64,000 nucleotides of DNA from a virus: IMG/VR virus record IMGVR_UViG_3300037184_000121, positions 43,603-107,602 of that record; one strand, written 5' to 3'. A program made the translations under genes and the position numbers. The stretch's first letter is position 1. The number at the start of each line of letters is the position of its first letter. Positions 15,374 to 61,214 of the stretch are shown in pieces. The notes below the pieces were generated by a model. It saw nothing but the letters and a program-made list of their open reading frames with translations, ran no database searches and had not been told where the DNA came from.

Positions 15374-15886
15374 ATGCTAAAAGGAACTCATCATTTAAAA
15401 GAGACACGTCTTGCCATTAGTTATTCAAAGCAAGGAGTTCTTTTTACTAAAGAGCATAGTGGTAAAATAAGTAAAGCTCTTAAGAATAAACACAAAACTC
15501 TTGCTCATCGTAAAGCTATTAGCTTGGGTCGAAGAAATGGTCTTAAAAGGAATAGGGTAGTTTGTAAGATAGAGAAAGGAATTAGTAGAATGAATGTTCC
15601 TTTGCGTTATTTTTTGTCTAAATTGAAGATGAAGTTGACCAATAGAAATGAGTCTAGATTTTTGAGGATAAAAAAGACCATTTTAAATTTTGTCCAGACA
15701 CATAAACGTTTACCTCATAAGCATTCTTCCTATAATTATGCAGAGCTGCCAGATTGGTCTAAAAAAGAACGGGTATTAAATTATCGGTTGTCTTATTTCA
15801 CTAGTAAAGGCTCTGGATTTGATCCTAGATTTAAACAGCAGCTTGAAGATTTGCGTAGTGAACTTGGTATTGGAAGAGGGATTTAA
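15374..15886 (+). CDS. NUMOD-type DNA-binding protein, possible homing nuclease remnant
   Basis: 170 residues from ATG 15374 behind GGAG. The first 55 residues resemble NUMOD3 repeats (FTKEHSGKISKALKNKHKT, then LAHRKAISLGRRNG), DNA-binding modules of homing nucleases. The remaining basic helices have no recognised HNH or GIY-YIG core. It may be a nuclease that lost its catalytic domain or a free-standing regulator. Confidence 0.6.
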   Translation: MLKGTHHLKETRLAISYSKQGVLFTKEHSGKISKALKNKHKTLAHRKAISLGRRNGLKRNRVVCKIEKGISRMNVPLRYFLSKLKMKLTNRNESRFLRIKKTILNFVQTHKRLPHKHSSYNYAELPDWSKKERVLNYRLSYFTSKGSGFDPRFKQQLEDLRSELGIGRGI

Positions 15887-15891
15887 AAGAG

Positions 15892-16074
15892 ATGATTAGG
15901 TATTTTGTCAAAAGTCAACGGTTTCAATTTAGCGTTAAGGATGAATTTTTATGTGGTGGGAAACCACTATGGGATCAGACACTGATGGATTTAGCAGGGA
16001 TTGGTATAAATTATATTCCAGCGGATAATTTAAAATATTTAGAAAAGTGTTGGGAAGAATCTATAAATGAATAG
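15892..16074 (+). CDS. Small protein ending in the NLKYLE tag
   Basis: 60 residues with only two Cys and no CGH knuckle, but the C-terminus is PADNLKYLEKCWEES, the family tag. It heads a run of four true family members and is coupled to the next by an 8-base overlap. Confidence 0.65.
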   Translation: MIRYFVKSQRFQFSVKDEFLCGGKPLWDQTLMDLAGIGINYIPADNLKYLEKCWEESINE

Positions 16075-16282
16075 TATTCCTTGTAAATGTAGTCATGGAT
16101 TAGAGGAGCATTTTCTAAATTCATCAAATAGGATTACATGCAGAGTGTGTGCTGCTCCAATATTTAGCATGAGCAAGGAAGAATGGAATTTAAAAAAGAA
16201 AGAATTAAGGTTTTATTGGGTACATCCATACAAGAGAGATAACCTCAAATATTTGGAGCAGTTGGTGAGTAACAATGACTGA
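16067..16282 (+). CDS. CGH/NLxYLE family small protein
   Basis: 71 residues: C-K-C-S-H-x4-H at residues 6-15, C-R-V-C at 25-28, and tag RDNLKYLEQL at about 59-67. A Lys/Glu helix fills the middle in place of the second C-x-C. Confidence 0.7.
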   Translation: MNSIPCKCSHGLEEHFLNSSNRITCRVCAAPIFSMSKEEWNLKKKELRFYWVHPYKRDNLKYLEQLVSNND

Positions 16283-16502
16283 GCAAGAGCGTCAAGAACA
16301 GCGCATTAACTTTTATAAAATAAGGGCTATGTCTCCTTGCCTCTGCAGCCATGAATCTATCGATCATACCTGTTGGGTAGATGCTGATGGAAGTGGAAAA
16401 GGACTTGTGTATCCTGATTTTAGATACTGTGACACAAGGTATTGTGAATGTGAGAAGTATAAACAAGACAATCTAAGATACCTGGAGAGTTTAAGTGAGT
16501 AA
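16275..16502 (+). CDS. CGH/NLxYLE family small protein
   Basis: 75 residues. After a 20-residue basic helix come C-L-C-S-H-x4-H, then C-D-T-R-Y-C-E-C-E-K-Y and the tag DNLRYLESL at the extreme C-terminus. Overlaps both neighbours by 8 bases. Confidence 0.75.
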   Translation: MTEQERQEQRINFYKIRAMSPCLCSHESIDHTCWVDADGSGKGLVYPDFRYCDTRYCECEKYKQDNLRYLESLSE

Positions 16503-16689
16503 AGATTTTCCTTGTGAGTGTGGACACATAAGGCAGTCAGAGGAAACCCTCAACAGTATTTGTGTATCATGGCATGATGATAGAGATAATGATCATCAAT
16601 TAGCTGCATGTCGCTACTGTGATTGTAAGAGATACAGACCAAGTAATTTAAAGTATTTAGAAAGGTTGGCTGAAAAGTATGAATATTGA
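16495..16689 (+). CDS. CGH/NLxYLE family small protein
   Basis: 64 residues from GTG. C-E-C-G-H near residue 7, C-R-Y-C-D-C-K-R-Y near 45, tag NLKYLERLAEKYEY at the end. The second knuckle His of the usual pair is not at the standard spacing. GTGA junction with the preceding gene. Confidence 0.75.
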   Translation: MSKDFPCECGHIRQSEETLNSICVSWHDDRDNDHQLAACRYCDCKRYRPSNLKYLERLAEKYEY

Positions 16690-16861
16690 AATGAAAGATG
16701 ATGAAGTATTTGATTTTTTAAGTAAGAAATTGACCGTTCTTCAAGTTGATATAAAATATAATGAGAATGGGCCTACTTGGTTAGCACAGATGGAGAAGAT
16801 AAAATCCTTAACTAGAGCTGTGGAAGTTATAGTTAATAGGAAATTTAATGAACCTGAGTAA
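16679..16861 (+). CDS. Small helical protein
   Basis: 60 residues overlapping the previous gene by 11 bases. Mostly helical and charged, no Cys. Not recognised. Confidence 0.55.
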   Translation: MNIEMKDDEVFDFLSKKLTVLQVDIKYNENGPTWLAQMEKIKSLTRAVEVIVNRKFNEPE

Positions 16862-16891
16862 TAAAGCCCTTGACAGCACTGGATAATTATA

Positions 16892-17233
16892 ATGTCAAAC
16901 AGTAATAGATATATAAGTGTTTTGAAATGCAAATGTAATCATAAATATTATGAGCATGAGTTTTTCGATAGCAAGGATATAGGGTTTGATATTGATCCTC
17001 GTCCAGAAGCATGTATTTATTGCGAATGTCTTGATTTTGTAGATTGGAGAATAAATAGGTGGTGTATTTGTGGTCATGCTGAAAGTGAACACCATCTTGG
17101 CATTGTATCAGGTTCTACTATTTGTCGTGAGTGTCTTAGGTTTAATATAAATCGTAATACTCATCCATTTAGGCCAGATAATCTAAGATATTTGGAATGG
17201 AAATGGGAAGAAAAATTAGCTCTTGACAAGTAG
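16892..17233 (+). CDS. Double-module CGH/NLxYLE family protein
   Basis: 113 residues carrying two knuckle modules in tandem: C-K-C-N-H-x4-H with C-I-Y-C-E-C, then C-I-C-G-H-x4-HH with C-R-E-C, and a single C-terminal tag RPDNLRYLEWKWEEK. It looks like a fusion or duplication of two family units that kept only the last tag. A TTGACA at 16870 lies upstream but without a -10 at normal spacing. Confidence 0.75.
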   Translation: MSNSNRYISVLKCKCNHKYYEHEFFDSKDIGFDIDPRPEACIYCECLDFVDWRINRWCICGHAESEHHLGIVSGSTICRECLRFNINRNTHPFRPDNLRYLEWKWEEKLALDK

Positions 17234-21863: not shown

Positions 21864-22868
21864 ATGTCTGATGAAAAAGGACTCAAAGCCTTTCTAGCAA
21901 AGATCAGTGAGAATCGTAAAACGGTGGTATCTCAAATTAAGCATATGGATGATCGTCCTGCTTTTGAGGTAATTCCATCAGGAAGTTTAGCTATTGATGA
22001 TGTGCTTGGTGCAGGTGGATTTCCTCGTGGTAGGGTCATTGAAGTTTTTGGACCTGAATCAGGTGGAAAGACTACCTTGTGCCTCTTAGCTATCGCTTCT
22101 TGTCAACGGGCGGGAGGGATTGCTGCTTTCATTGATGCAGAAAACTCCATCTCACTTGATTGGGCTGCTAAACTTGGGGTTGATGTTGAGAATCTTGTTT
22201 TCAATCAACCTGATAGTGGAGAACAGGCTTTATCGGTTGTTCGAGATATGATTGAATCTAATCTATTCGACATGATCGTTGTTGATAGCGTTGCAGCTCT
22301 TACACCTCAGTCGCAGCTTGCAGGAGAGATCGGTGATCAGACAATGGCATTACAGGCTCGTATGCTTGGGGCTGCAGTTCCATTGCTGGTACATGCAGCA
22401 GCTAGTTCAAAGACTGTACTTCTGTTCATTAATCAGTTGCGTGATACGATGGCTATGTATGGTCCTAAAGAGACAACTCCAGGAGGGAAGTCACTGAAAT
22501 TCTACAGCAGCATTCGTCTTGGCGTTAGCAAGGTCAGTGGTTCTGAGATTAAAGTAACGAAGGATAATGGTGAAGTGGGCGAAACAGGAGAAGTCTTGGG
22601 TCATCGAGTGAAAGTCAAAGTAGTTAAGAATAAGGTTGGTCGTCCTATGCGTGAGGCTGAATTCAATCTGCGATTCACTCAGGGTATTGATCGATTCGAT
22701 GAGCTTATTACCCTTGGTATCTCCAGAGACATCATTAAGAAAAGTGGTCCTATGGTTGCCTTTGGACCTATCAATGCTAAAGGTTTGGAGAAGTTTACCG
22801 AAGCTCTTAAGGCTGATGAAGCTTTGCAGAAGACATTAGAAGAGGCCATTCGAGGCGTTACAAAGTAA
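21864..22868 (+). CDS. recA: RecA recombinase
   Basis: 334 residues. Walker A GPESGGKTTL (about residues 57-66), Walker B MIVVDSVAAL, and the RecA-type loops SQLAGEIGDQ and LFINQLRDTM are all present, followed by GGKSLKFYSSIRL. This is the bacterial RecA type rather than T4 UvsX. It promotes strand exchange on ssDNA coated by the preceding SSB-like protein. The C-terminal domain is short and lacks the acidic tail common in bacteria. Confidence 0.95.
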   Translation: MSDEKGLKAFLAKISENRKTVVSQIKHMDDRPAFEVIPSGSLAIDDVLGAGGFPRGRVIEVFGPESGGKTTLCLLAIASCQRAGGIAAFIDAENSISLDWAAKLGVDVENLVFNQPDSGEQALSVVRDMIESNLFDMIVVDSVAALTPQSQLAGEIGDQTMALQARMLGAAVPLLVHAAASSKTVLLFINQLRDTMAMYGPKETTPGGKSLKFYSSIRLGVSKVSGSEIKVTKDNGEVGETGEVLGHRVKVKVVKNKVGRPMREAEFNLRFTQGIDRFDELITLGISRDIIKKSGPMVAFGPINAKGLEKFTEALKADEALQKTLEEAIRGVTK

Positions 22869-24655: not shown

Positions 24656-26056
24656 ATGGCACGAAATCCACGTAAGCATCATAAAGATACATTTTTCACA
24701 TCTCAATTCGACAATATACCTCCTCAGTTGATGCCAAATCTTTCTGCGAAGGATTATATCGAGGTCTTGAAAGAGGCTCGTTGGAATAACGACTACAAGA
24801 ATGCCGTGACGATAGAATACCTTGGGGCAAAATCCATCGATGAAGTGGTTTATGCAGATTACAAGTGTTCTCTGGCTACTTCATTGGTCCTACGTAATAT
24901 TCTTCCTGAATTCATTGAGAGCAAGGGCCTGAAGGTTGATAAAGTTGCAGCTGTTGAATCTGATGGCGATTATGCGCCTTCCTATAGCTCTATCGAGGTT
25001 GCTCCTGGGAAGATGGAAAACCGATTAGTCTATGGAGATTACTTTGTGTCCAGCGATACACAGAAGTATCTTATTCATCTGGAAGATTCATATCCTGATT
25101 CTTTTAGATTTAAGATTGCCAGCAAGAAAACCACTACCCCAGATGCTAATATTTTATCGGAAGAGATGATAAAGTATGGAGAAACTCACAATTTCCTTAA
25201 GGGTCAGAAGATTGATCCTAATTGTAACTTTGTGAAATTTAATCGTAAATTCACTTGGGATGATCTTATTCTGTCCGATAAGATTAAGACTGAGATTCAG
25301 ATGAATCTAAAGAATCTCATCGAGTATCGTGAGATCTATAAGAAAAATGGTTTACAGGTTAAACGTGGTTTGATTCTTGCAGGTGAGCCAGGGACAGGTA
25401 AAACTGTACTAGCTAAGATTCTTTGTAACCAGATTGATTGGACATTCGTTTGGGTTACATCAAAGAATCTGGAAAATGCTAAACGTGTTGCTCAGATTGT
25501 TGAGCTGTGCCGAGATCTTTCTCCAGCTATTCTATTCTTGGAGGATATTGATCTATTCGGAGGGTCACGAGAATCAAACAACAATCCTATGCTGCTTGGA
25601 GAGTTGCTGAATCAGTTGGATGGTATTGAAGAGAACACGGACATCATTGTTATTGGCAGCACAAATAATAAAGAGGTTCTGGAAAAAGCCTTAGTAGCTC
25701 GTCCAGGTCGTTTCGATAAGGTCATCGATTTCCCTCTGCCAGATTATGAGGAGAGATTGAAGATGCTTAAGGTGTTCAGCAATGGCTTACTAGATGAGAA
25801 TCTTCCCTTCCTTGATAAGATTGCCAAAGAATACACAAAGAAGACAGGGGCTCAGATTCGTGAGTTAGTTAATATGGCTATTATTTTTGCCGTGGATTCA
25901 AAATCCTACGCTGAAGATAAGAAGCTCATTATTACCGAAGCACATTTCAATAAAGCAATGAAAGCTGTAGCAGGTAAAGACTTTAAGGCAGTCACTGGAT
26001 TCAGCACAGGTGGACGCAACAACATTGGCAGCAGTTTTGATGCATTCGATGATTAA
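24656..26056 (+). CDS. AAA+ ATPase (FtsH/Bcs1-like module)
   Basis: 466 residues. A unique N-terminal region of about 230 residues precedes the AAA module: Walker A LAGEPGTGKTVLAKIL, Walker B AILFLEDIDLFGG, sensor VIGSTNNKEVLE, and arginine-finger region ARPGRFDKVIDFPLP. No protease domain follows, so it is probably a remodelling ATPase rather than a protease. The target is unknown; neighbours suggest replication or recombination complexes. Confidence 0.85.
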   Translation: MARNPRKHHKDTFFTSQFDNIPPQLMPNLSAKDYIEVLKEARWNNDYKNAVTIEYLGAKSIDEVVYADYKCSLATSLVLRNILPEFIESKGLKVDKVAAVESDGDYAPSYSSIEVAPGKMENRLVYGDYFVSSDTQKYLIHLEDSYPDSFRFKIASKKTTTPDANILSEEMIKYGETHNFLKGQKIDPNCNFVKFNRKFTWDDLILSDKIKTEIQMNLKNLIEYREIYKKNGLQVKRGLILAGEPGTGKTVLAKILCNQIDWTFVWVTSKNLENAKRVAQIVELCRDLSPAILFLEDIDLFGGSRESNNNPMLLGELLNQLDGIEENTDIIVIGSTNNKEVLEKALVARPGRFDKVIDFPLPDYEERLKMLKVFSNGLLDENLPFLDKIAKEYTKKTGAQIRELVNMAIIFAVDSKSYAEDKKLIITEAHFNKAMKAVAGKDFKAVTGFSTGGRNNIGSSFDAFDD

Positions 26057-26505: not shown

Positions 26506-26850
26506 ATGATTAAGCAAGTCCTCATATTGCGGCATGATCTCAAGGTGCGAAAGGGTAAACTAATCGCTCAGGGGGCTCATGCTGCAATAGGGGCTTTAGC
26601 CAAAGCCAAAGCAGAAGATATCAAGAAATGGGAAGAGAATGGATGTACGAAGATCTGTGTATCAGTGCCTGATGAGAATTCTTTGCTGCAGCTCAGGTTG
26701 GATGCATGGGTCGCTCAACTTCCCTATTATCTGGTGCAAGATGCAGGTCGTACAGAGTTTCACGGTGAGGCTACATATACTGCCTTGGGTATTGGCCCAG
26801 CTTCAGCAGAAGAGATTGATAAGCTAACTGGAAAATTACCACTTCTATAA
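26506..26850 (+). CDS. Peptidyl-tRNA hydrolase 2 (PTH2) family protein
   Basis: 114 residues covering the whole PTH2 fold: KVRKGKLIAQGAHAAIGA near residue 14, DAGRTEF near 84, and the closing GIGPASAEEIDKLTGKLPLL. PTH2 is typical of archaea and eukaryotes, where it frees tRNA from stalled peptidyl-tRNA. It occurs in some phages. It may support translation late in infection. The stop overlaps the next start (TAATG). Confidence 0.9.
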   Translation: MIKQVLILRHDLKVRKGKLIAQGAHAAIGALAKAKAEDIKKWEENGCTKICVSVPDENSLLQLRLDAWVAQLPYYLVQDAGRTEFHGEATYTALGIGPASAEEIDKLTGKLPLL

Positions 26851-28091
26851 TGTACATCAGTAAAATTATCTTAGAGAATTTTCAGGCATTTGACAAGGGA
26901 GAATTTGTTCTTTCTCCGAACCTGAATATTCTAGTTGGAGTCACAAATGTGGGAAAGAGTTCTGTAGCAAGGGCTCTTTCTCTTGTGCTGTTTAACCAGT
27001 GGGATAAGAGTTGGTGCAGATTTGGGGCTAAGTATTGCAGAGTGTCCATCCTGACTGATACTGGTATTGAAGTGATCCGTGAGAAGGGTGAGAAAGTCAA
27101 TCGCTATATACTACGGTTGCCCAGCCAGCCAGAGCAGCTATTTGAATCCTTTGGTACAACGGTGCCAGAGCAGGTCCAGCAAGCTCTAAGGATTCATGAG
27201 GTCCAGGTTGATACAACAGATAAGCTCAACTTGAATTTGGCAGGACAGATGGATGCTCTTTTCCTGCTATCTCAGACTGGCAGCTATCGTGCTAAAGTTT
27301 TGGGTAAGCTTTCAGGTGCTACGTATTTGGATCATGCCATTCGGGAACTTAACAAAGACAAGAGGCAAGTTACAGCAGAGAAGAATTCCAAGGATCTTGA
27401 AATCGTTGAGTTACAGGCCCAGGTATCTAAATTAGAATCAATTGAGTCATATTCTGATGTTATAAAGGCACTTGAGGGCAGATTAGAGTCCTTAAGATGC
27501 TCTCAAGAGCGTGTAGAGCGCATAAGGAGCCTATTTGAGCGTGTAAAAGTGCTAAAAGCTGCTTGGCTAAGGGAAACAGAGATTGAGGCTCTTTTAGGGC
27601 AAGTTGAAGTAGGTAAGATTGATCAATTAGTTCAGAAATCTGTTAAATTGTCTACCTTAAGTTTACTTTTTAGCAAATTTACTGAATTTCATACAGTATT
27701 TGAGCACCAGACTAAACTACAAACCCTTTTAAGTCAAATAGACCTTGATTCAATTAGCCAGTTAGAACCAAAAGTGAATAGAGTAAAAAAGCTAGTTATA
27801 TTATCTGCTAAGTACAATGCTTGGCAGGGAATGTACTCTAAACAGAATCTAATTAATAACCTATTGACCCCTGTTGATATTTCTGTTATATCTGTATTGG
27901 CTGAGAAAGCATCTAATTTAAAACGAGTTAATGATTTATCGGTTAGGATTAGTAGAAATCAAAAGGAACTTGTAAGTAAAGCTGATGAGTTGGGGCAAGT
28001 AGAGCAGCAATATCAAGAGGCTAAGGAACAGTATAGTGAGATGCTTAAAGCTAATGGGACCTGCCCTATTTGTGGAGTGAGTACGATATGA
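26850..28091 (+). CDS. SbcC/Rad50 N-terminal half ending at the zinc hook
   Basis: 413 residues. The ATPase N-lobe begins ILENFQAFDKGEF and has Walker A VGVTNVGKSSVA (about 31-42). A long coiled coil follows (about 170-400), and the protein stops after C-P-I-C-G, the Rad50 zinc-hook motif, six residues from its end. The C-terminal lobe is encoded separately at 31485. The two halves would need to assemble to form an ATPase head, with the nuclease at 29322. Function: DNA end processing in recombination-dependent replication. Confidence 0.9.
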   Translation: MYISKIILENFQAFDKGEFVLSPNLNILVGVTNVGKSSVARALSLVLFNQWDKSWCRFGAKYCRVSILTDTGIEVIREKGEKVNRYILRLPSQPEQLFESFGTTVPEQVQQALRIHEVQVDTTDKLNLNLAGQMDALFLLSQTGSYRAKVLGKLSGATYLDHAIRELNKDKRQVTAEKNSKDLEIVELQAQVSKLESIESYSDVIKALEGRLESLRCSQERVERIRSLFERVKVLKAAWLRETEIEALLGQVEVGKIDQLVQKSVKLSTLSLLFSKFTEFHTVFEHQTKLQTLLSQIDLDSISQLEPKVNRVKKLVILSAKYNAWQGMYSKQNLINNLLTPVDISVISVLAEKASNLKRVNDLSVRISRNQKELVSKADELGQVEQQYQEAKEQYSEMLKANGTCPICGVSTI

Positions 28092-28324
28092 AGAAGTGTC
28101 CTCCTGAGCCAACAGATGAATGTCGTAATTGTTTTCATTTTGATTATCAACATATTGGAGCTGATGAATTTATAATTCCTTGTGCCGAGATATTGCAGAC
28201 CGTATATGATACGACAGAAAAGATAATTCTTGTTATAAAAAGATGTGAATGCAGTAATTATGAACCATTGGATAATTTAAAATATTTGGAAAAAGAATAT
28301 GAATACAGGGCCTTACACGCTTAA
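28088..28324 (+). CDS. CGH/NLxYLE family small protein
   Basis: 78 residues from ATG 28088, coupled by ATGA to the Rad50-like half. Motifs: C-R-N-C-F-H-x5-H, a single Cys at PCAEI, C-E-C-S-N-Y, and tag DNLKYLEKEYEY. A variant with C-x2-C in the knuckle. Confidence 0.75.
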   Translation: MKKCPPEPTDECRNCFHFDYQHIGADEFIIPCAEILQTVYDTTEKIILVIKRCECSNYEPLDNLKYLEKEYEYRALHA

Positions 28325-28502
28325 ATTAATTCATGATAAATGTCCTTGTGGTCATGCTAGGTATGATCATTATAGTGAGAAATTTGATTATGGATGTATT
28401 CATAGAATGGGTAGATATACTGGAAAGAAATGTATCTGCCCTGGATTTTCTGAAGATAATTTGATTTATTTGGAGAAGCTCTGTGTCAATAGAGATAGTT
28501 GA
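28299..28502 (+). CDS. CGH/NLxYLE family small protein
   Basis: 67 residues overlapping the preceding member by 26 bases. C-P-C-G-H-x4-H, a middle Cys, C-I-C-P-G-F and tag DNLIYLEKL. Confidence 0.75.
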   Translation: MNTGPYTLKLIHDKCPCGHARYDHYSEKFDYGCIHRMGRYTGKKCICPGFSEDNLIYLEKLCVNRDS

Positions 28503-28686
28503 TTTTAGCCCTTTATGTCATTGCAATCATAGGAAGTATGAACACATTTATGATATGACTTGTAGTGGAAGAACTTTAATTGAAGAAAGGAAAGGTGTAT
28601 TATACTATTTGTCATGCAATTGCAAAAAATATAAATTAAATAATCTTGCTTATTTAGAACAAAAGTATGAGGAGAGTTTAGTATGA
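28483..28686 (+). CDS. CGH/NLxYLE family small protein
   Basis: 67 residues from GTG. C-H-C-N-H-x4-H near residue 12, C-N-C-K-K-Y near 47, tag NNLAYLEQKYEES. Overlaps the preceding member by 20 bases. Confidence 0.75.
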   Translation: MSIEIVDFSPLCHCNHRKYEHIYDMTCSGRTLIEERKGVLYYLSCNCKKYKLNNLAYLEQKYEESLV

Positions 28687-28784
28687 ATTTAGGATTTGGA
28701 TATGTTTGTTTTTATTGTGAAGGGGATACAAGTAATGCAAGTGGAATTTGTGAAAGATGCAGAAAAGATAGAGGCAGTAAATGA
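28683..28784 (+). CDS. Tiny zinc-ribbon protein, 33 residues
   Basis: C-F-Y-C (residues 9-12) and C-E-R-C (24-27) make a minimal zinc ribbon. Joined by 4-base overlaps to genes on both sides, supporting expression. Confidence 0.6.
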   Translation: MNLGFGYVCFYCEGDTSNASGICERCRKDRGSK

Positions 28785-29155
28785 AATGTATTATTGCAGG
28801 TAGTAGAACAATTACAGATCCATTAGAGCTTGAGAAGGCTATTAAGCTTAGTGGCTTTTCACCCATAGATGAGGTTGTATGTGGAGGGGCAGTTGGGGCT
28901 GATGAATTAGGAAGACTTTGGGCTATTAAGAATAGCATTCTCCTTAAATTCTTTTTTCCTGATTGGGAAACTTATGGCAAGTCAGCAGGTCCTCTAAGAA
29001 ATACTCAAATGGCTACTTATGTGGGTCCTGAAGGTGGATTGATAGCTTTGCATGATGGGATCTCTAAGGGAACGGCTGATATGATTCGAAAGGCAGAAAG
29101 ATTTAATTTGAAAGTATATGTGCATTTGGTGAAGAAGGAAGAGAAAGAATCATGA
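28781..29155 (+). CDS. SLOG-family (DUF2493/YpsA-related) Rossmann-like protein
   Basis: 124 residues. IIAGSRTITD at the N-terminus, VVCGGAVGADELGRLWA and a GISKGTADMIRKAE end match the DUF2493/YspA branch of SLOG proteins, which bind nucleotides or nucleotide-derived signals. One of three SLOG or deoxyribosyltransferase-like proteins in the window. Role unknown. Confidence 0.75.
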   Translation: MKCIIAGSRTITDPLELEKAIKLSGFSPIDEVVCGGAVGADELGRLWAIKNSILLKFFFPDWETYGKSAGPLRNTQMATYVGPEGGLIALHDGISKGTADMIRKAERFNLKVYVHLVKKEEKES

Positions 29156-29325
29156 TGAAAAAATGCAGCAAGTGTAGACATTTTTTAGAACAGCATATTA
29201 ATATAGATTCTAGACTGCTTAGATCTAGATATGTATCTTTTCTTATTCCCAGTTCCTATGGAGAGCACCCTTTTTATAAAGGATGTTCCATAAGGGATTG
29301 TAAATGTCACGAGTTTGCTTTATGA
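29152..29325 (+). CDS. CGH family small protein without tag
   Basis: 57 residues. C-S-K-C-R-H-x4-H at the start and C-S-I-R-D-C-K-C-H-E-F at the end, stopping where the NLxYLE tag would begin. ATGA junctions on both sides. Confidence 0.65.
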   Translation: MMKKCSKCRHFLEQHINIDSRLLRSRYVSFLIPSSYGEHPFYKGCSIRDCKCHEFAL

Positions 29326-30245
29326 AAATTCTTTACTTTACCGATGCTCATTTAAGATCACAGTCTGATAGACCTAAATGGAGAGTAGATGATCATTATG
29401 TTTCTCAATTTGAAGAGCTTCAGGAAATTCGGGATTTAGCTGTAATCCATAATGTAGATCTTATAATCTCTGGTGGGGATACAATACATCATCCTGATGT
29501 AAGTCATGCATTGGTTGGGGATATTATAAATTGGTGTAAAACTCTTCCTTGTGCTTTCTACTCAGTGGTGGGTAATCATTGTTGTTTTGCTTATCGAACA
29601 GCTGATTTGAGAAGCAGCGGATTGGGAGTCCTGTTTGAGTCGGGTATGGTGGGACGATTGGATGAGTTGGTATTTGAAAAAGAGAAAGTGGTTATTCATG
29701 GTATACATGCATTTCTTGATCCCCATCAAGGAAACTATTTGTTTGAATCTAAGTATGATGGCTATAAGAAATATATTGTAAGTCATAATTTTGTAATCAA
29801 AGAAGATGTGATCTTTGATGCTGTGAAACCGAAAGATATTAAAACAAACGCAGATATCATTTTTTTGGGTCATTATCATAAGGGATCGGATTTAGTAGAA
29901 GGAATGACAAGATTTATTAATCCTAGTTCTCTTAGTCGTTGGGCAATAAATGAGCAGCATAAACCAACTATTCTAATTTTAGATACTACAACTAATGAAA
30001 TTATTCCTATTGAATTGAAAAGCTCTAGGCCAGCCAATGAAATCTTCGACTTGGCAGGGGCTGCAGAGATGAAATCTACTGAGATGAATTTACAGACATT
30101 CGTGGATAGTTTGAATAACTCAACTTTTGAAAATGTGGATGTTAGCCAAGTGGTCTTGACAAAGGGAAAAGAACAAGGTATACTTAAAGAGATACTGGAT
30201 TTGTGTCTAAAGAAAGTGGAAGAAGCTAAGGAACAGTTAAAGTGA
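29322..30245 (+). CDS. SbcD/Mre11-like nuclease
   Basis: 307 residues from ATG 29322. Phosphoesterase motifs: FTDAHLRS, SGGDTIHH, VVGNHCC, and SHNFVIKE then LGHYHKG. Size and setting between the two Rad50-like halves point to the nuclease partner of an SbcCD or gp46/47-type complex. NHCC replaces the common GNHD. The promoter for downstream genes lies inside its 3' end. Confidence 0.85.
   Translation: MKILYFTDAHLRSQSDRPKWRVDDHYVSQFEELQEIRDLAVIHNVDLIISGGDTIHHPDVSHALVGDIINWCKTLPCAFYSVVGNHCCFAYRTADLRSSGLGVLFESGMVGRLDELVFEKEKVVIHGIHAFLDPHQGNYLFESKYDGYKKYIVSHNFVIKEDVIFDAVKPKDIKTNADIIFLGHYHKGSDLVEGMTRFINPSSLSRWAINEQHKPTILILDTTTNEIIPIELKSSRPANEIFDLAGAAEMKSTEMNLQTFVDSLNNSTFENVDVSQVVLTKGKEQGILKEILDLCLKKVEEAKEQLK
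30156..30184 (+). promoter_or_regulatory. Intragenic promoter in SbcD-like gene
   Basis: TTGACA 30156-30161 and TATACT 30179-30184, spacer 17, no TG extension. Would transcribe the small genes and Rad50-like C-half downstream. Confidence 0.55.
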
Positions 30246-30379
30246 AAATTTGCATATGTGGCCATGGTGAAAAAGAGCATGAATCAGATTCTCAATGGGA
30301 TAGGGAATCGGGGGATGAATGGTATATGACATGGTGTTTAATAGAAGGATGTAAATGTGGAGAATATACAAATGGATAA
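30242..30379 (+). CDS. CGH family small protein without tag
   Basis: 45 residues from GTG on a GTGA junction. C-I-C-G-H-x4-H, then C-L-I-E-G-C-K-C-G-E-Y. The tag is absent. Confidence 0.65.
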   Translation: MKICICGHGEKEHESDSQWDRESGDEWYMTWCLIEGCKCGEYTNG

Positions 30380-30596
30380 TTATCAAAGAACAGAAGGATG
30401 GGCAGCTTGTGATAGGATAAAAGAATTAGTTTCTAAAGGATTACCTGTTCCATTTTCAGAATTATATCTTGTAACCACTTTTAAAAATTCAGATGGAGAA
30501 TTAGCTAGAGCAGAATGGAAGAAATATTTAGAAGATAACGATTATGAAATGAGTATTCTTCATTTACAATATGCTAAGAAGGAGTCTAAAATATGA
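30372..30596 (+). CDS. Small hypothetical protein
   Basis: 74 residues from ATG 30372, overlapping the previous gene by 8 bases. Mixed helical, ends in a Lys/Glu tail. Not recognised. Confidence 0.55.
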   Translation: MDNYQRTEGWAACDRIKELVSKGLPVPFSELYLVTTFKNSDGELARAEWKKYLEDNDYEMSILHLQYAKKESKI

Positions 30597-30847
30597 GTAT
30601 TGAACAAGATCTATTAAGTTTAAAATCTAAAGGTGAACAGCTTAATACTGCCAAAATTCAAAATGCTACTAAGCTTGCAGCTCTTGAACAAGAAAAAGAG
30701 AAGCTGCTATTAGAAGCTAAGGAATTAGGTATCGCACCAGAGGCTATTGAGGCTACATTGAAGAGCGAAGAGGCAGCTATTCAGGCAGAAGTTACAAAGA
30801 TTGGCACTGAACTAGCAAGGGTCTTAGATGAAATCAGTCGAATATAA
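30593..30847 (+). CDS. Coiled-coil protein
   Basis: 84 residues, almost all heptad-like (LAALEQEKEKLLLEAKEL, then IQAEVTKIGTELARVL). Could pair with another coil such as the split Rad50-like arms, but there is no direct evidence. Confidence 0.6.
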   Translation: MSIEQDLLSLKSKGEQLNTAKIQNATKLAALEQEKEKLLLEAKELGIAPEAIEATLKSEEAAIQAEVTKIGTELARVLDEISRI

Positions 30848-31139
30848 GAGTATTTGCCGAGCTTGTGATCATCTCCATCAAGGATATGTTTGCAATTGGC
30901 AAGTCAATAAAGTTGGCACTATCAAACTAAGGCCAACCTATTCCAGTCTATGGGGTTTACTTCCAGGACATACACATAGTGAAGAAGATGTCTCACGTAT
31001 AGAAGATCATGCAACTAATTTGTATAAAGAAGAGACATTTGAATATAGGCAAGAAGTCGATTGTGGCTGCAGATGCTACATACCCAGTGAGAATTTAGAA
31101 TTTTTAGAATGGAAATATGATGAGACTGGGAAGATATAG
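30828..31139 (+). CDS. CGH/NLxYLE family protein, long form
   Basis: 103 residues. C-R-A-C-D-H near residue 10 and VCNW, an insert of about 50 residues, then C-G-C-R-C-Y and tag ENLEFLEWKYDETG. The longer insert distinguishes this subgroup, whose tag ends EWKYD. Confidence 0.7.
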   Translation: MKSVEYKSICRACDHLHQGYVCNWQVNKVGTIKLRPTYSSLWGLLPGHTHSEEDVSRIEDHATNLYKEETFEYRQEVDCGCRCYIPSENLEFLEWKYDETGKI

Positions 31140-31278
31140 TTACTGTATTTGTGGCCATACTTTGTATCAGCATACATTCTTTTTATGTGAAAAGTGTTTG
31201 AGTAGCAAAATTTGTTGGCACCAATTTAAACTAGATAATTTAAAATACTTAGAAAAACAATATGCAAAGAAATTATAA
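31117..31278 (+). CDS. CGH/NLxYLE family small protein
   Basis: 53 residues. C-I-C-G-H-x4-H, C-E-K-C, a lone Cys-Trp-His, and tag LDNLKYLEKQYAKK. The start may be ATG 31117 or 31120. Overlaps both neighbours. Confidence 0.7.
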   Translation: MMRLGRYSYCICGHTLYQHTFFLCEKCLSSKICWHQFKLDNLKYLEKQYAKKL

Positions 31279-31507
31279 ATGTCAAAATTGTGAATGCTAT
31301 CATCAAGCATCTTATAATGCTCTCATAGGGTTTCAAGAGGATAAGCCAGTATATGAATTGGGGAATCCTGAAAGTGTTTGTGAAGATTGTATTCGATTAC
31401 CTAAATTTGAAAATAATGTATTAGGGTGTTGTAAATATCAGCCACGATATATAACTAATTTAGAATTCTTAGAGTGGAAATATAATGAATCTGATAAATC
31501 AATTTGA
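31262..31507 (+). CDS. CGH/NLxYLE family small protein
   Basis: 81 residues. C-Q-N-C-E-C-Y-H, C-E-D-C, C-C-K-Y and tag TNLEFLEWKYNESD. The knuckle is diverged, but the tag closely matches 6750 and 30828. Confidence 0.7.
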   Translation: MQRNYKCQNCECYHQASYNALIGFQEDKPVYELGNPESVCEDCIRLPKFENNVLGCCKYQPRYITNLEFLEWKYNESDKSI

Positions 31508-32123
31508 TCAACTAAAGAACAACTATCATAGAAAAGCAGGGCAGCTACAAGCCTTGAAAGATCGAGTTGCAGTATGTCAAGAGAAGGTTATCCAGTTGAC
31601 AGATAAAGAAGATACTACGCTGAAAGCCAGTCTCTTCCTTCAGTCCCTGTCAGATCAGACTCGCTTGCAAGTCCTTGATAAAATCTCTGGCATTGTGACT
31701 GATGCCTTGCAGACAGTAAAGGATAAGAATCTTGTATTTTCTATGCAGCTGGTAGTTAAGGCTAATCAGCCTACCCTGGAAATGGGGATCTTGGATAAGT
31801 TGTCAGGTCAGACCTACGATGTGCTTACCTCTTTTGGTGGTGGGATCTGCGATATCGTTTCCTTGGCCTTGCGGGTAGCTTTATTAGTGAAGTGGCAACC
31901 ATCCTTGTCTCGTGTGTTGATCCTGGATGAATCTTGCAAGCATGTGGCTCAGAAAGATCAGGAGCTATTAGCCGAGTTTGTTAAGAAGCTTTCAGAAGCA
32001 CTTAATTGTCAGTTCATTTGGATTAGTCATAGCGAAGTTTTACAGCAAGCCGCGCATAAGATTTTTGAGGTAACTAAACATGACGGAATATCAACAGTCA
32101 CAGAAAAAAGCTCCAGTCTTTAA
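31485..32123 (+). CDS. SbcC/Rad50 C-terminal half
   Basis: 212 residues. A short coiled coil (about 1-45) then the ABC signature SFGGGICDIVSLALRVAL, Walker B RVLILDES and H-loop IWISHSE. It lacks Walker A, which is on the separate N-half at 26850. Its coil is much shorter than that of the N-half, so the two arms would not match in length. Overlaps the preceding tagged protein by 23 bases. Confidence 0.9.
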   Translation: MNLINQFDQLKNNYHRKAGQLQALKDRVAVCQEKVIQLTDKEDTTLKASLFLQSLSDQTRLQVLDKISGIVTDALQTVKDKNLVFSMQLVVKANQPTLEMGILDKLSGQTYDVLTSFGGGICDIVSLALRVALLVKWQPSLSRVLILDESCKHVAQKDQELLAEFVKKLSEALNCQFIWISHSEVLQQAAHKIFEVTKHDGISTVTEKSSSL

Positions 32124-32658
32124 CGAAGATGCTACACTTAGAGGTGCTTGGAGACGAGTTTTTGCGAGAGCCCCTATTGTTAGGGAAATAAGAGAAGAGG
32201 GCCGTAGAACAGTTCCTCGTTATACTAAAGATGGGTCCAGACATAAAGTAGATTCTGTACAGTACTTGTGTCAAGTTTGTAATCAATGGGCACCTGCTAA
32301 GATGATTGAAGTAGATCATATAATTCCAGTGATCGATGTAGATAACATTTCTGGAAAGGTGCAGGATTGGAATGAGTACAAGCGAAGACTCTTCTGTGAG
32401 AAGAAGAATTTGCAGCGAATCTGCGATACTTGTCATGATAAGAAAACTTATGAAGAGCGTATGATTCGACAGTCACATAAAGATAGAGTGATTTTAGATC
32501 AATTAGAAGAACGTCTTAAGAGTGCTTGGACGATTCATGAAGAAGTAGACCTTAAGAAGCAGGTTACAAAATTTCTTAGCAAGAAGAAAGCTCAAGAAAC
32601 TCGTGATAGGGCTCTCAAATTAAAGCAGATCATTGTTAGTAAATTAAAGGAAGATTGA
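32080..32658 (+). CDS. HNH endonuclease
   Basis: 192 residues. LCQVCNQWAP then EVDHIIPVIDVDN and LQRICDTCHDKKT give a zinc-stabilised HNH core. Basic helices follow. Similar proteins act as homing or packaging-linked nucleases; position beside recombination genes does not decide. The first 43 bases overlap the Rad50-like C-half. Confidence 0.8.
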   Translation: MTEYQQSQKKAPVFNEDATLRGAWRRVFARAPIVREIREEGRRTVPRYTKDGSRHKVDSVQYLCQVCNQWAPAKMIEVDHIIPVIDVDNISGKVQDWNEYKRRLFCEKKNLQRICDTCHDKKTYEERMIRQSHKDRVILDQLEERLKSAWTIHEEVDLKKQVTKFLSKKKAQETRDRALKLKQIIVSKLKED

Positions 32659-32921
32659 TGAATACTCCCGCCATTTGTGGATGGGTTGCTACATTACTAT
32701 TCGCTCTTTCATATCTTCCACAAATTTTTCATACCTATAAAATAAAAAAGGTAGGAGATATTAGTGTTAGTTTATGGTGGATATTGCTTGTAGCTTATAC
32801 ATGTGGGATCTGGTACGGGATTGATTTAAAGCAATGGCAGCTTATCTGTGGATATTTTTGGGGTTTCGCTTGTAGTTTTATCTATTTGGTGTTATACTAC
32901 AAATACAGGGGTAACAAGTAA
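32658..32921 (+). CDS. SemiSWEET/PQ-loop membrane protein
   Basis: 87 residues from ATG 32658 overlapping the HNH stop. Three hydrophobic segments with the PQ motif in FALSYLPQIFHTYKIKK, then DISVSLWWILLV, matching a SemiSWEET (one PQ-loop triple-helix unit). These dimerise to form small sugar transporters. In a phage it could change host sugar flux; the substrate is unknown. Confidence 0.8.
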   Translation: MNTPAICGWVATLLFALSYLPQIFHTYKIKKVGDISVSLWWILLVAYTCGIWYGIDLKQWQLICGYFWGFACSFIYLVLYYKYRGNK

Positions 32922-34317: not shown

Positions 34318-34462
34318 TTATCCTTGTATTTGTGGTCATTCTAAAATTAACCACAACAATATAAATACACAGACTTGGTGTTTAGTTGCAAGGTGTGATT
34401 GTAGTTTTTTTAACCCTGATAACCTTAGATATTTGGAGAAGAAAAGTGGATCTGCAGAATAA
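34304..34462 (+). CDS. CGH/NLxYLE family small protein
   Basis: 52 residues overlapping both the previous gene and the polymerase start. C-I-C-G-H-x4-H near residue 8, a Cys at WCLV, C-D-C-S-F-F near 31, tag DNLRYLEKKS. A compact, near-consensus member. Confidence 0.75.
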   Translation: MVAINYPCICGHSKINHNNINTQTWCLVARCDCSFFNPDNLRYLEKKSGSAE

Positions 34463-36980
34463 AGCTTGTATAAAATGTCCTCTGAATGAACTTAGAACTT
34501 GTGTCCTTAATGGAACAGGTAATGAGCAATCAAAGCTCATGTTTGTGATGGATGCCCCCTCCAAAGAGGATGATATGTACAAGGAGCCCTTTCGTGGGCC
34601 AGCCAGTAGAAAGCTAGATGCACTTTTGGCTAGATTTGGTATTCATAGAAGTCAAGTATATTTTACATACGCAACAAGGTGCCGAGCTAATTTAAAGACG
34701 ATGGAAGGTGTGCGTCCAGCTCATTTTGAAGAGATCCAGGCTTGCTCTGAGTATCTTGTTAAAGAGATTGAGTCTATTAAGCCGTATGTCATTGTGGCTA
34801 TGGGAACAGAGTCTATTTCGGCTGTGCTAGATATTAAAAAGCCGAAGGTTGGGGAGTTGCGGGGAATTGAAACCTGGAGTGATAGATTTAATTGTAAGGT
34901 CTTTCCTACACTCAGCCCAGGAGCCATTTTAAGGAATCCGAACCAAGAAGAAGTATTGATTCAGGATCTTCGCAGGGCTATTGAATCTTCTAAATACCAG
35001 CCTATGACTGTTGTAGAGAAAGGCAATTATATTGTCATTGATAGCATTGAGAGATTGGATGCCTTCTATGATAGAATCATGGAGCAGGAAGAGGTAGCTG
35101 TAGACTTAGAAACGACAGGATTTGATTGGCAGACAGATAAGATCATTTGTTGCTCTTTCTCATGGGCTGCTAATACTGGAGTATTGTTACCTATTACTAA
35201 GTGGATCGGTGTACCCCATGAGAAAAAAGTTGTAAAAGATAAGAAGGTTACACGAAAGGGGGTCACGACTATAAAGCAGGTTGAGTCTTTGGAAAAAACT
35301 ATTGAAGATACTTATCAACCATGGTGGGGTGATCAGCAGGAATATGTGATGGCTAAATTCCGCGCTATCATGGAAAGCAATATTAAGTTTATAGCCCAGA
35401 ATGGCAAGTTCGATTGGAAATTCCTTTTACAGATGGGATGGGATCTTAAGCCACTAGCCTATGATACTCTTCTGTTACATTACTTGCTCCGTGAAACTTC
35501 TAAGGGTGAGCATAACCTGGAGGACATGTCCCTTCAATATCTTGGAAAAGGTCAGCACAAAAAAGAGTTGGATGATTGGTTTAAAGCCAATAAGATGAAT
35601 GATGATGAAAAGAAGAACTATGCTAGAGTTCCTACCGATTTGCTATTCTCCTATGGTGCAGCCGATGCTGATGTAACCTTGCAGCTTAAGAACATCTTCC
35701 TTCCTCGTGTAGAGGCCGAAGGGATGAGCGAATTATTTTATCGCCTTGTGATGCCCTTAAATTATACACTAACCATTATGGAGTTTGGGGGATTTAAGGT
35801 TGACCGTAAGGCATTAGCTAAAGCTAGGGCTGATCTGGAACAACAATTAATTAACAAAGAAAAAGAAATTAAGACTATCGTTGGTGAGGTTGATTTGGAT
35901 TCTCCTAAACAACTTTCTAAATTGCTATTTGAAACGTTGAAGCTTACACCTGTCAAACAGACGAAGACAGGATTTTCAACAGATGAAGAAGTCATGCTCA
36001 TTCTAAAAGACAAGCACCCCGTACCAATGAAGATTGTCGAGTACAGAGGTATTGCTAAGCTGCTTAGGACTTATGTTATTGGAATTGAAGAACGCTTAGA
36101 TGCAAATGATCGTCTTCATACAAAATTTCTTCAGGAAGGTACAGAATCAGGACGACTTTCCAGCCGAGATCCAAACTTTCAGAATTTCCCTCGTGATGCT
36201 AAGGCTATTAAGAATTCTTTTATCGTCGATCCAGGTAATGTATTAATTGAGGCTGATGAAGGGCAGAATGAGTTTAGATGGTGGGGAATTTATTCAAATG
36301 ATTCTCAGTTGGTTCGAGATCTAAATGAAGGAGTAGACATCCATAAACTTGTGGCTTCTTTAGCCAACAAGATTCCAATTGAACAAGTAACCAAAGATCA
36401 ACGTCAGAAAGCTAAGTCTATCGTTTTCGGTCTGATGTTTAATATGGGAGCTGAAGAACTTTCTAAGAAGCATGGTGTTACAGTCGAATACGCTGAGCAG
36501 GTTAAAGCTCTGTTCTTCGCTCGTTATCCAACAGCCAAACAGTGGAAGTACGAGATTGTTAAATTTGCGAAAAAGAACTTATACGTCCAGAATCGTTTTG
36601 GTCGAGTGCGTCACCTCTTAGCAATCAATAACCCAGATAATAAGGTTGCCTATGCTGATGAACAGGGTGCAGTAAACTCTCCTATTCAGGGGGCTGCATC
36701 CGATTACGTATCCAATTCAGCCAATAGAATTTTTATGCGCTTCAAAGAAGAAGGGCTGCATGGCAAGCTCCGTAACCTGATTCATGATGCTATTTACGTA
36801 GAGGCTCCCCAAGTTGAGTTGATCCAGACCTTGAAGATCATTAAAGAAGAGATGGAACGTAGAATTCTGGGTATCCAGGTTCCTTTGGTAGCTGAGTTTA
36901 AGGTTGGTAAGCGTTGGGGTCGAATGCACAAGCTGGAAGTAAATAACATTCTTAATAAACAGGTAGCAAAATCGATATAA
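34446..36980 (+). CDS. Family A DNA polymerase with N-terminal UDG-like domain
   Basis: 844 residues from GTG 34446, which follows GGAG and overlaps the small gene before it. Residues 1-190 resemble family 4 uracil-DNA glycosylase, with CIKC and two later Cys as possible Fe-S ligands, but the active-site segments read MDAPSKEDD and TLSPGAIL, so the catalytic His is Ser. Then the 3'-5' exonuclease (DLETTGFDW, AQNGKFDW, YGAADADV) and polymerase (RLSSRDPNFQN, ADEGQNEFRW, KSIVFGLMF, HDAIYVEA). The tyrosine of the O-helix is Phe, and motif C has HDA for HDE. Confidence 0.95.
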   Translation: MDLQNKACIKCPLNELRTCVLNGTGNEQSKLMFVMDAPSKEDDMYKEPFRGPASRKLDALLARFGIHRSQVYFTYATRCRANLKTMEGVRPAHFEEIQACSEYLVKEIESIKPYVIVAMGTESISAVLDIKKPKVGELRGIETWSDRFNCKVFPTLSPGAILRNPNQEEVLIQDLRRAIESSKYQPMTVVEKGNYIVIDSIERLDAFYDRIMEQEEVAVDLETTGFDWQTDKIICCSFSWAANTGVLLPITKWIGVPHEKKVVKDKKVTRKGVTTIKQVESLEKTIEDTYQPWWGDQQEYVMAKFRAIMESNIKFIAQNGKFDWKFLLQMGWDLKPLAYDTLLLHYLLRETSKGEHNLEDMSLQYLGKGQHKKELDDWFKANKMNDDEKKNYARVPTDLLFSYGAADADVTLQLKNIFLPRVEAEGMSELFYRLVMPLNYTLTIMEFGGFKVDRKALAKARADLEQQLINKEKEIKTIVGEVDLDSPKQLSKLLFETLKLTPVKQTKTGFSTDEEVMLILKDKHPVPMKIVEYRGIAKLLRTYVIGIEERLDANDRLHTKFLQEGTESGRLSSRDPNFQNFPRDAKAIKNSFIVDPGNVLIEADEGQNEFRWWGIYSNDSQLVRDLNEGVDIHKLVASLANKIPIEQVTKDQRQKAKSIVFGLMFNMGAEELSKKHGVTVEYAEQVKALFFARYPTAKQWKYEIVKFAKKNLYVQNRFGRVRHLLAINNPDNKVAYADEQGAVNSPIQGAASDYVSNSANRIFMRFKEEGLHGKLRNLIHDAIYVEAPQVELIQTLKIIKEEMERRILGIQVPLVAEFKVGKRWGRMHKLEVNNILNKQVAKSI

Positions 36981-41998: not shown

Positions 41999-43267
41999 AT
42001 GAGTATGCTTACAGTGATGGAAAAAGTAACAATCCGCTTGATCCAGTCAAGTCCCTTTTATGCCAGTCTCCTATCACAGATGCGTAAGATCGAGTGTGTA
42101 GGAGATCTTGCAAAGCAGATTCCTACTGAGGCAGTTGCCGTTGAGAATGGCAGAATCAATTTCTATTTCAATCCGAAGTTCCTTGAGACTCTTACCGTCG
42201 AGGAAGCGGTTGCAGTTCTTACTCATGAGTGTAACCATGTGGTTCTAGGACATCTGACTCGTATGCGTGATGAGTATAAAGAGAATGGTTCCCTTGCCAA
42301 CATAGCTCAAGACATGAATGCCAATCAAAATATTCAGCACCTTCCCCATGGGGCTTGCACCGTTCAATCAATCACAGCAGAGTTTGCTAAGAAGGGAATC
42401 AAATTGAATCTGAAGGATGACGATACCTCTGAGAATCATTATAAGGAATTGAATAAACATTCCAATAAAATGTCAGTAGAGCAGAACGCTGATGGCACCT
42501 ATGATCTTGTTATTAAAGATGCAAACGGTAAAGAGGTCGGGCGAATCAAAGTATCACCCTGCAGCAATAAGGATAAGCAATCTGAAGGTAACATGAAGGG
42601 AGATATCCCTGAGTTGGCTAAAGAAGTGATCCGACAGGCGGTTAAAGAAGCGGCTGAGGCAACACAGAAGGCTCGTGGGCACCTTCCTTCTGGCCTGGAA
42701 GAGGCTATCGGGGAATGGCTTAAGCCTCCAGTGATTTCCTGGAGAACCTTGCTAAAACGATTTCTGGCTGCATCCATTAAGTCGGGGAGTAAGAGAAGCT
42801 GGAAGCGTCCTAATCGTCGCTTTGGTGACTTGCAGAAGGGTAAGCTGAGTGATCGAATGGTCAGTGTCACGATTGCCATTGATACCAGTGGCAGTATATC
42901 CACTGAGGATTTTAAATCCTTTATTTCTGAAATGAGAGCTATACAGTCCTGTTATAAGGGAACGATGACAGTCATGGAATGTGATGCTGAGATTCAGAAG
43001 ACCTATAAACTGAACAAGTATAAAAAGATCCAAACTAATTTTAAAGGAAGAGGTGGGACAAGCTTTAGACCTGTGTTTGAGTATATTAAAGAGAAAAGAT
43101 TGAAAACAGATTTGCTTGTGTTTTTTACAGATCTTTGGGGTGATCAGGAAAACTGCCAAAAACCCCCTTACCCTGTTCTGTGGGTTTCTACGACAAGTGA
43201 TCAAAAGGTCCCATTTGGACATGTAATATCTTTAGTAGATAATCCTGATAAAAGGGATAAAAAATAA
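41999..43267 (+). CDS. DUF2201-like metallopeptidase with VWA domain
   Basis: 422 residues. Residues 70-90 hold VLTHECNHVVLGHLTR, an HExxHxxxGH zincin motif. A long linker follows, and a C-terminal VWA-like domain has VTIAIDTSGSIS (MIDAS D-x-S-x-S) at about 300. This architecture matches DUF2201 putative metal-dependent peptidases, which are usually encoded next to a MoxR AAA ATPase, as here. The substrate is unknown. Confidence 0.85.
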   Translation: MSMLTVMEKVTIRLIQSSPFYASLLSQMRKIECVGDLAKQIPTEAVAVENGRINFYFNPKFLETLTVEEAVAVLTHECNHVVLGHLTRMRDEYKENGSLANIAQDMNANQNIQHLPHGACTVQSITAEFAKKGIKLNLKDDDTSENHYKELNKHSNKMSVEQNADGTYDLVIKDANGKEVGRIKVSPCSNKDKQSEGNMKGDIPELAKEVIRQAVKEAAEATQKARGHLPSGLEEAIGEWLKPPVISWRTLLKRFLAASIKSGSKRSWKRPNRRFGDLQKGKLSDRMVSVTIAIDTSGSISTEDFKSFISEMRAIQSCYKGTMTVMECDAEIQKTYKLNKYKKIQTNFKGRGGTSFRPVFEYIKEKRLKTDLLVFFTDLWGDQENCQKPPYPVLWVSTTSDQKVPFGHVISLVDNPDKRDKK

Positions 43268-60426: not shown

Positions 60427-60601
60427 TAGATTCTATTCCGCATTGGATATAGATATTATGATAGGGTTGGATGACTTAGCTCACAACCGAATGTACCAAA
60501 GTGTCAATGGTAAGATGCAGCAAGTAAATAACTATGGCAGACGCAATAAGAATGAGGTATGCTACTGCAAAGAGCTTAAGAGGTTGAGGATTAAGAGATG
60601 A
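60419..60601 (+). CDS. Small hypothetical protein
   Basis: 60 residues from ATG 60419 behind GGGAGG. Basic end with one C-Y-C. Not recognised. Confidence 0.55.
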   Translation: MDNRFYSALDIDIMIGLDDLAHNRMYQSVNGKMQQVNNYGRRNKNEVCYCKELKRLRIKR

Positions 60602-61146: not shown

Positions 61147-61214
61147 TTAAGTATATTGAGGTTATTTACTGACAGGTAGGAAAATGCACCGACGTTTGAA
61201 GGTAGGAGCAGAGA

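What the first reader, a model, noticed from the sequence alone, without database searches (positions are those of the whole stretch)
26850..32123. Rad50/SbcC split exactly at the zinc hook
The N-half ends six residues after C-P-I-C-G, the hook motif, and the C-half with signature, Walker B and H-loop is a separate gene 3.4 kb downstream. The SbcD-like nuclease and about ten tiny genes lie between. Coil lengths differ greatly (about 230 versus about 45 residues), so the arms cannot pair fully. It implies a two-subunit Rad50 or a new coil partner, such as the coiled-coil protein at 30593.
Basis: partly seen in the sequence, partly recalled or inferred. Interest (0 to 1): 0.7.

Follow-up and report, generated by a model that had tools for sequence, protein, structure and literature searches.

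The report
Phage Rad50 split at zinc hook
A large, mostly uncultured group of phages makes the DNA-repair motor Rad50 as separate proteins cut at its zinc hook, together with a small, previously unnamed coiled-coil partner, so the long arm of this well-known machine must be built in a different way.

Summary
The split is real, old and common; it is not an artefact. The window's N-half (26850-28091) carries Walker A and Q-loop and stops 4 residues after CPICG. The C-half (31485-32123) carries signature, Walker B and H-loop. No single-chain Rad50 was found in the 107.6-kb record. I found 106 distinct N-halves in viral contigs and bacterial prophages. The C-half is separate wherever it was found. 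CxxC lies in the last 32 residues of 100 of 106 N-halves and is invariant in a 47-sequence alignment at 24% mean identity.

That 84-aa coiled coil lies in the module in 83 loci holding all four genes, and in 15/15 bacterial loci not used to build its profile. It is fused to the C-half once; SbcD is fused to the N-half twice.

The N arm is built of ~47-residue repeats and varies from ~106 to 340 residues. The coiled-coil protein and the C-half stub do not scale with it, so a classical full-length antiparallel coil is not possible. Most likely this is a composite Mre11-Rad50 complex whose coil partner is this small protein. Assembly and the small protein's role are inferred, not shown.

The parts
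26850..28091 (+). Rad50 N-half: ATPase N-lobe (Walker A, Q-loop) plus ~240-residue arm ending in the zinc-hook motif
   Evidence: (phrog_16465 E 4.8e-42; phrog_77 SbcC E 5.5e-8)
26937..26960 (+). Walker A GVTNVGKS (residues 30-37); G30, G35, K36 invariant in 47 relatives
27609..28061 (+). arm repeat units (~45-47 residues each; predicted helices 254-295, 310-337, 346-402)
28062..28073 (+). zinc-hook CPIC (C405, C408), invariant in 47 relatives, followed by G and 4 more residues before the stop
29304..30245 (+). SbcD/Mre11-like metallophosphoesterase
   Evidence: (phrog_100 E 6e-10)
30593..30847 (+). 84-aa coiled-coil partner (cc; helix-turn-helix, turn LGIAPE), conserved module member
31485..32123 (+). 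Rad50 C-half: ~45-residue coil stub plus ATPase C-lobe
   Evidence: (phrog_15167 E 5e-31)
31830..31865 (+). ABC signature region SFGGGICDIVSL
31914..31931 (+). Walker B VLILDE (D148, E149 invariant)
32028..32030 (+). H-loop H182
28781..29155 (+). YAcAr/SLOG-domain gene, syntenic in the five closest relatives but not part of the core module
32080..32658 (+). HNH endonuclease gene, syntenic neighbour in the close relatives

Best explanation
This is a naturally split Rad50/SbcC working with SbcD. The N-half and C-half are predicted to pair their lobes into one composite ABC ATPase head. The C-half's short coil lies against the base of the N-half arm, where SbcD also docks. The N-half arm alone carries the zinc hook, so two N-halves join tip to tip. 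The descending coil of single-chain Rad50 is gone. Its place is taken by the small coiled-coil hairpin protein (cc, 30593-30847), probably packing along the ~47-residue arm repeats. The complex would process DNA ends and hairpins for phage recombination and replication. Shown: the split, motif partition, gene linkage, hook conservation, repeat arm, fusions. Inferred: physical assembly, zinc binding, the cc-arm contact, the nuclease function.
For: Walker A/Q-loop lie only in the N-half and signature/Walker B/H-loop only in the C-half, so neither half alone can form a Rad50-type site. The best solved relatives of both halves are archaeal Rad50 by sequence and Rad50/Mre11-Rad50 by fold. Rad50 family models align the N-half up to the hook region (window residues 162-409 to 207-442 of 878). 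The hook cysteines are invariant in 47 sequences at 24% mean identity; CxxC is in the last 32 aa of 100/106 N-halves. All four genes are on one strand in 83/83 loci that hold all four, and cc ends a median 11 nt before C. A cc profile trained elsewhere hits exactly once per locus in 15/15 held-out bacterial loci (666 ORFs of 60-130 aa), each time upstream of C. Natural fusions: SbcD-N in L071 and L106, cc-C in L062. The N arm varies 145-340 aa among 84 loci and does not track cc + C stub length (Spearman 0.03); the arm repeats at lag 47. RecA (window 21864-22868), UvsX, resolvase, helicase or sliding-clamp genes lie in or near these loci.
Against: No complex could be modelled and no experiment exists. 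cc is small and helical, so profile similarity could partly reflect composition; the held-out test and synteny speak against that. Five N-halves (L072, L084, L096, L110, L123) end in CPxT/CPxN...C instead of CxxC, a sixth (L109) has CPLRELC, and Microbacterium phage Magritte's N-half has no hook. In Tunturi_5, Magritte and the L096 and L073 viruses the parts are unlinked. The AlphaFold model of the N-half has pTM 0.42, so the arm's path is not settled.
Confidence: 0.8

Rival explanations
1. Same split complex, but the N arm is stabilised by itself (zig-zag helical bundle of its ~47-residue helices) or by the second N arm, and cc is a small regulator, adaptor or loader rather than a coil partner.
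For: Each arm unit is predicted as a single helix with short breaks; cc length does not scale with the arm.
Against: In a zig-zag, adding one unit would move the hook from tip to base. One-unit indels occur between close relatives that all keep the hook (window vs L009, a clean 45-residue gap; L010 two gaps). cc is found in essentially every module and is fused to the C coil in L062, the shortest arm measured in a module with a complete C-half nearby.
Confidence: 0.35
2. The halves act separately: N and C are independent SMC/RecF-like ATPases with other partners and do not make one Rad50 head.
For: Parts are unlinked in some phages (Tunturi_5, Magritte, L096, L073 viruses).
Against: Complementary loss of ATPase motifs, tight co-occurrence, SbcD-N and cc-C fusions, best fold matches to the two Rad50 lobes.
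Confidence: 0.05
3. Artefact or decay: frameshift, intron, intein or assembly error in a full-length gene.
For: Small genes lie between the halves.
Against: The same break point in over 80 distinct loci, including isolates and bacterial genomes; no intron family match; cc and often SbcD lie between the halves throughout.
Confidence: 0.01
4. cc is the detached Rad50-binding helix-loop-helix of Mre11/SbcD.
For: cc often starts in the last codons of SbcD (4-nt overlap in L005-L010) and is a helical hairpin.
Against: SbcD keeps a C-terminal helical tail of its own (read from sequence); cc is nearly always directly upstream of C but not always next to SbcD (29 loci N-cc-C-SbcD); its profile resembles the C-half coil stub.
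Confidence: 0.08

Closest known systems
Rad50/SbcC (E. coli SbcC, archaeal Rad50, T4 gp46) with Mre11/SbcD (gp47)
   Same: ATPase motifs, lobes, SbcD neighbour, CxxC hook at the arm end
   Different: One chain with the hook in the middle (505 of 1048 in SbcC, 287 of 560 in gp46) against two chains cut at the hook, a missing descending coil, a repeat-built N arm and an extra subunit
Engineered Rad50 catalytic domain from separately expressed lobes (PDB 1F2T/1F2U, 1II8: separate N and C chains)
   Same: Two chains make one head; shows that such a split can work
   Different: Man-made, lacks arm, hook and cc
PHROG families 16465 (exonuclease), 15167 (ATPase), 18563 (unknown)
   Same: Window N and C match 16465 and 15167; cc relatives in the alignment match 18563
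   Different: Listed as separate families; nothing found describes them as one Rad50 system
Other SMC-like phage or defence ATPases (RecF, RecN, GajA, PtuA)
   Same: P-loop N-lobe similarity
   Different: Weaker and confined mostly to the P-loop; in PADLOC the window C-half has no match

Membership tests
Rad50/SbcC | Walker A and Q-loop N-lobe | tested here: met
   G30, G35, K36 invariant, Q133 at least 90%; PDB hits to archaeal Rad50
Rad50/SbcC | Signature, Walker B, H-loop C-lobe | tested here: met
   G118 G119 D148 E149 H182 invariant in 11; PDB hits to archaeal Rad50
Rad50/SbcC | CxxC zinc hook at the arm end | tested here: met
   C405/C408 invariant in 47; 100/106 distinct N-halves; metal binding not testable
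Rad50/SbcC | SbcD/Mre11 partner in the module | tested here: met
   83 four-gene loci, all same strand; two SbcD-N fusions
Rad50/SbcC | Single polypeptide with both lobes | tested here: not met
   No fused N+C ORF in any locus; C-half separate and unlinked in four further viruses
Rad50/SbcC | Two antiparallel coil arms of matching length | tested here: not met
   N arm ~145-340 aa; C stub about 45-50 aa, not scaling
Split Rad50 module (proposed) | Small cc protein next to N or C | tested here: met
   15/15 held-out bacterial loci; 83 four-gene loci
Split Rad50 module (proposed) | Physical N-C-cc-SbcD complex with ATPase and nuclease activity | not testable with these tools
   no multimer modelling or bench work

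The most novel reading that the evidence does not exclude
A modular Rad50 arm: each ~47-residue repeat of the N arm is one helix that is completed by one copy of the cc hairpin into a three-helix segment. Arm reach would then be set by repeat number and filled by several cc copies per arm (about four for the window: (240-50)/47). This would explain why cc is a separate constant-length protein, why the arm length is roughly quantised, and why cc is fused to the C-half in L062, whose arm is about one repeat beyond the C stub.
Probability: 0.35. Interest if true: 0.82.

Novelty: new variant of a known kind. Interest (0 to 1): 0.64.

Why it matters
What the long Rad50 arm and hook do is a long-standing question, and in ordinary Rad50 the arm cannot be exchanged without cutting into the ATPase chain. 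Here nature has separated head, arm, hook and a likely coil partner into exchangeable parts, with arm lengths differing by whole repeats between close relatives. This would allow direct tests of arm length, hook function and subunit exchange. It would also give a function to PHROG families now listed as 'exonuclease', 'ATPase' and unknown, and to a small protein that belongs to a conserved machine.

Tried and rejected
Assembly or frameshift artefact and intron: rejected by over 80 independent splits and no Rfam intron match. Hidden full-length Rad50 in the genome: none found. Classical full-length antiparallel coil between N, cc and C: rejected because the lengths do not co-vary. Zig-zag arm: disfavoured by one-unit indels with the hook retained, but not excluded. 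cc as the detached Mre11 helix-loop-helix: disfavoured by gene order and by SbcD keeping its own helical tail. Structure search did not resolve the arm path. cc versus the N arm by profile comparison: no convincing homology (prob 16); cc versus the C stub prob 71, treated as suggestive only. IQ-TREE timed out; FastTree used instead. A search for more cc-C fusions found only L062's own contig.

Full report
CHECK OF THE OBSERVATION. The N-half is 26850-28091 (413 aa); it has Walker A GVTNVGKSS and ends CPICGVSTI, four residues after CPICG rather than six. The C-half is 31485-32123 (212 aa) with GGG signature, VLILDE and H182. An SbcD-like phosphoesterase lies between them (phrog_100), with small ORFs. 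The window is the last 64 kb of a 107,602-base phage record; searches of the whole record found one N-lobe and one C-lobe and no full-length SbcC. The record may be a fragment, so absence there is weak alone, but relatives settle it. No intron family matches the region.

THE SPLIT IS OLD AND WIDESPREAD. PHROGs already hold the two halves as two families, 16465 and 15167. Close relatives L005-L010 keep the order N - SbcD - cc - C - HNH. Wider scans of viral contigs gave 34 loci by the C-half and 80 by the N-half, partly the same contigs, and 15 bacterial loci, mostly Firmicutes. I built profiles of N, SbcD, cc and C from the viral loci. There are 106 distinct N-halves; 83 of those loci hold all four genes on the held stretch, all on one strand, in the orders N-SbcD-cc-C (49), N-cc-C-SbcD (29), SbcD-N-cc-C (4) and one other. 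No ORF contains both N and C. Where C was missing nearby, it was found as a separate gene elsewhere in four of eight such viruses. Among 50,697 phage records only three isolates (vB_BboS-125, Tunturi_5, Magritte) and one uncultured genome turned up in six protein searches, which may explain why the system has gone unnoticed. A FastTree of 73 split systems and five single-chain outgroups separates the split group from SbcC, T4 gp46 and SPO1 gp21.9 (support 0.96 for the single-chain clade). The outgroup sample is small, so a single origin is likely, not proven.

THE HOOK IS KEPT. In a 47-sequence alignment with 24% mean identity the invariant columns are G30, G35, K36, R41, F138 and the hook cysteines C405 and C408. 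CxxC lies in the last 32 residues in 100 of 106 distinct N-halves, with the first cysteine a median 14 residues from the end. Exceptions: L072, L084, L096, L110 and L123 end CPxT or CPxN ... C, L109 has CPLRELC, and Magritte's N-half (gp155) shows no hook at all.

THE THIRD PROTEIN. The 84-aa protein at 30593 (cc) is not a chance neighbour. A cc profile made from viral loci hits exactly once in each of the 15 bacterial loci, out of 666 ORFs of 60-130 aa, each time upstream of C. Relatives occur next to N in Tunturi_5 (gp180), in vB_BboS-125 (gp34) and in Magritte (gp245). In L063, L067 and L047 the profile missed cc, but a small ORF with a similar helix-turn-helix pattern sits in the expected place; that is a reading by eye. 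In L062 cc is fused to the front of C: AlphaFold gives helix 2-55, a turn, helices 61-77 and 79-160, then the lobe (mean pLDDT 89.5). In L071 and L106 SbcD is fused to N. The two kinds of fusion link SbcD with N and cc with C. Profile comparison gives cc versus the C-half coil stub prob 71, E 3.8e-5, against 16 for cc versus N; coiled-coil composition may contribute.

THE ARM. The N arm (lobe end to hook) is about 240 aa in the window. Across 84 loci it runs 145-340 aa with clusters near 150, 193, 240, 293 and 340, while cc (median 84) and the C stub stay about constant. Arm against cc + C stub has Spearman 0.03; taken singly the correlations are weak and of opposite sign (cc -0.27, C stub 0.40) and depend on which start codon each ORF was given. 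L062 has about 106-109. Averaged over 79 arms the sequence resembles itself most at lag 47, well above the helical background; the z of 20.9 is against block-shuffled arms and ignores relatedness. The window's own arm peaks at 45, and L009 lacks a clean 45-residue stretch of it. Four single-chain coil segments long enough to test gave no peak as strong as the window's, though one (Brevibacillus SbcC, C arm) peaks weakly at 47. AlphaFold predicts single helices 157-249, 254-295, 310-337, 346-402, but pTM is 0.42. So the N arm cannot be matched by one full-length descending coil.

HOW IT MOST LIKELY WORKS. Shown: motif partition, linkage, hook conservation, repeats, fusions. From established Rad50 knowledge: head formation needs both lobes, and P. 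furiosus Rad50 lobes made as separate chains form a head (PDB 1F2T/1F2U and 1II8 as two chains, retrieved). Inferred: N and C make one head, SbcD docks at its base, two N arms meet through zinc, cc replaces the lost coil. The modular version, one cc per arm repeat, is the most novel reading. It fits the constant cc length, the stepwise arms and the fusion in the short-armed L062, but rests on one fusion and on spacing. A zig-zag arm is less likely because close relatives differ by one unit yet keep the hook.

WHAT IT IS NOT. The tiny Cys-rich genes between the halves are not part of the module: in L005-L010 most are absent and SbcD, cc and often C abut or overlap.

NOVELTY. The proteins belong to the Rad50/SbcC superfamily by motif and fold, but two defining features of Rad50 fail (single chain, matched coils). 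I therefore file it as a new variant of a known kind. Eight paper searches of the held open-access library found no description of a split phage Rad50; subscription papers and preprints were not searchable.

Noticed in passing
28070-28324, 28299-28502, 28483-28686, 29152-29325, 30242-30379, 30828-31139, 31117-31278, 31262-31507; also about 10600, 15862-17230, 34298, 36981, 48411, 60595-62180 and L002 10463: A family of about 20 tiny Cys-rich paralogues (CxCGHx5H ... CxC) with a shared 'DNLxYLExxY' tail is scattered over this phage genome; eight of them are inserted inside the Rad50 operon. A profile of the eight finds about 25 frames in the record, the weakest doubtful; no Pfam match for the three tested.
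   Followed up: partly
L072 9992-11428, L096 9998-11290, L110 9941-11404, L123 9950-11299, L084 9941-11242: A sub-clade of N-halves ends in CPxT/CPxN...C instead of CxxC, with cc nearby (not in L084) but no C or SbcD within the held stretch; C was found far away in two of the viruses.
   Followed up: partly
L071 8957-11338, L106 8957-11374: Natural fusion of SbcD to the Rad50 N-half in one chain of 793-805 aa; BFVD entry A7KV18 (769 aa) is the best viral fold match to the window N-half and may be another.
   Followed up: partly
26506-26850: PTH2-type peptidyl-tRNA hydrolase (PF01981, E 1.6e-34) in a phage, directly upstream of the N-half and syntenic in close relatives.
   Followed up: no
32655-32921: Single PQ-loop/SemiSWEET-like membrane protein (PF04193, E 8.7e-9) in a phage genome.
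   Followed up: no
34386-36980: DNA polymerase A with an N-terminal uracil-DNA-glycosylase-superfamily domain and a 3'-5' exonuclease domain in one chain.
   Followed up: no
41999-43267: DUF2201 VWA/putative metallopeptidase protein; an AAA ATPase (24656-26056) in the same genome could be its partner (partnership is a guess).
   Followed up: no
L017 14494-15627 and the ~1.1-kb gap class in L049, L099, L101, L103, L111, L120, L122, L128: In L017 a sliding-clamp-like gene sits between cc and C; other loci show a gap of the same size there, contents not checked.
   Followed up: partly
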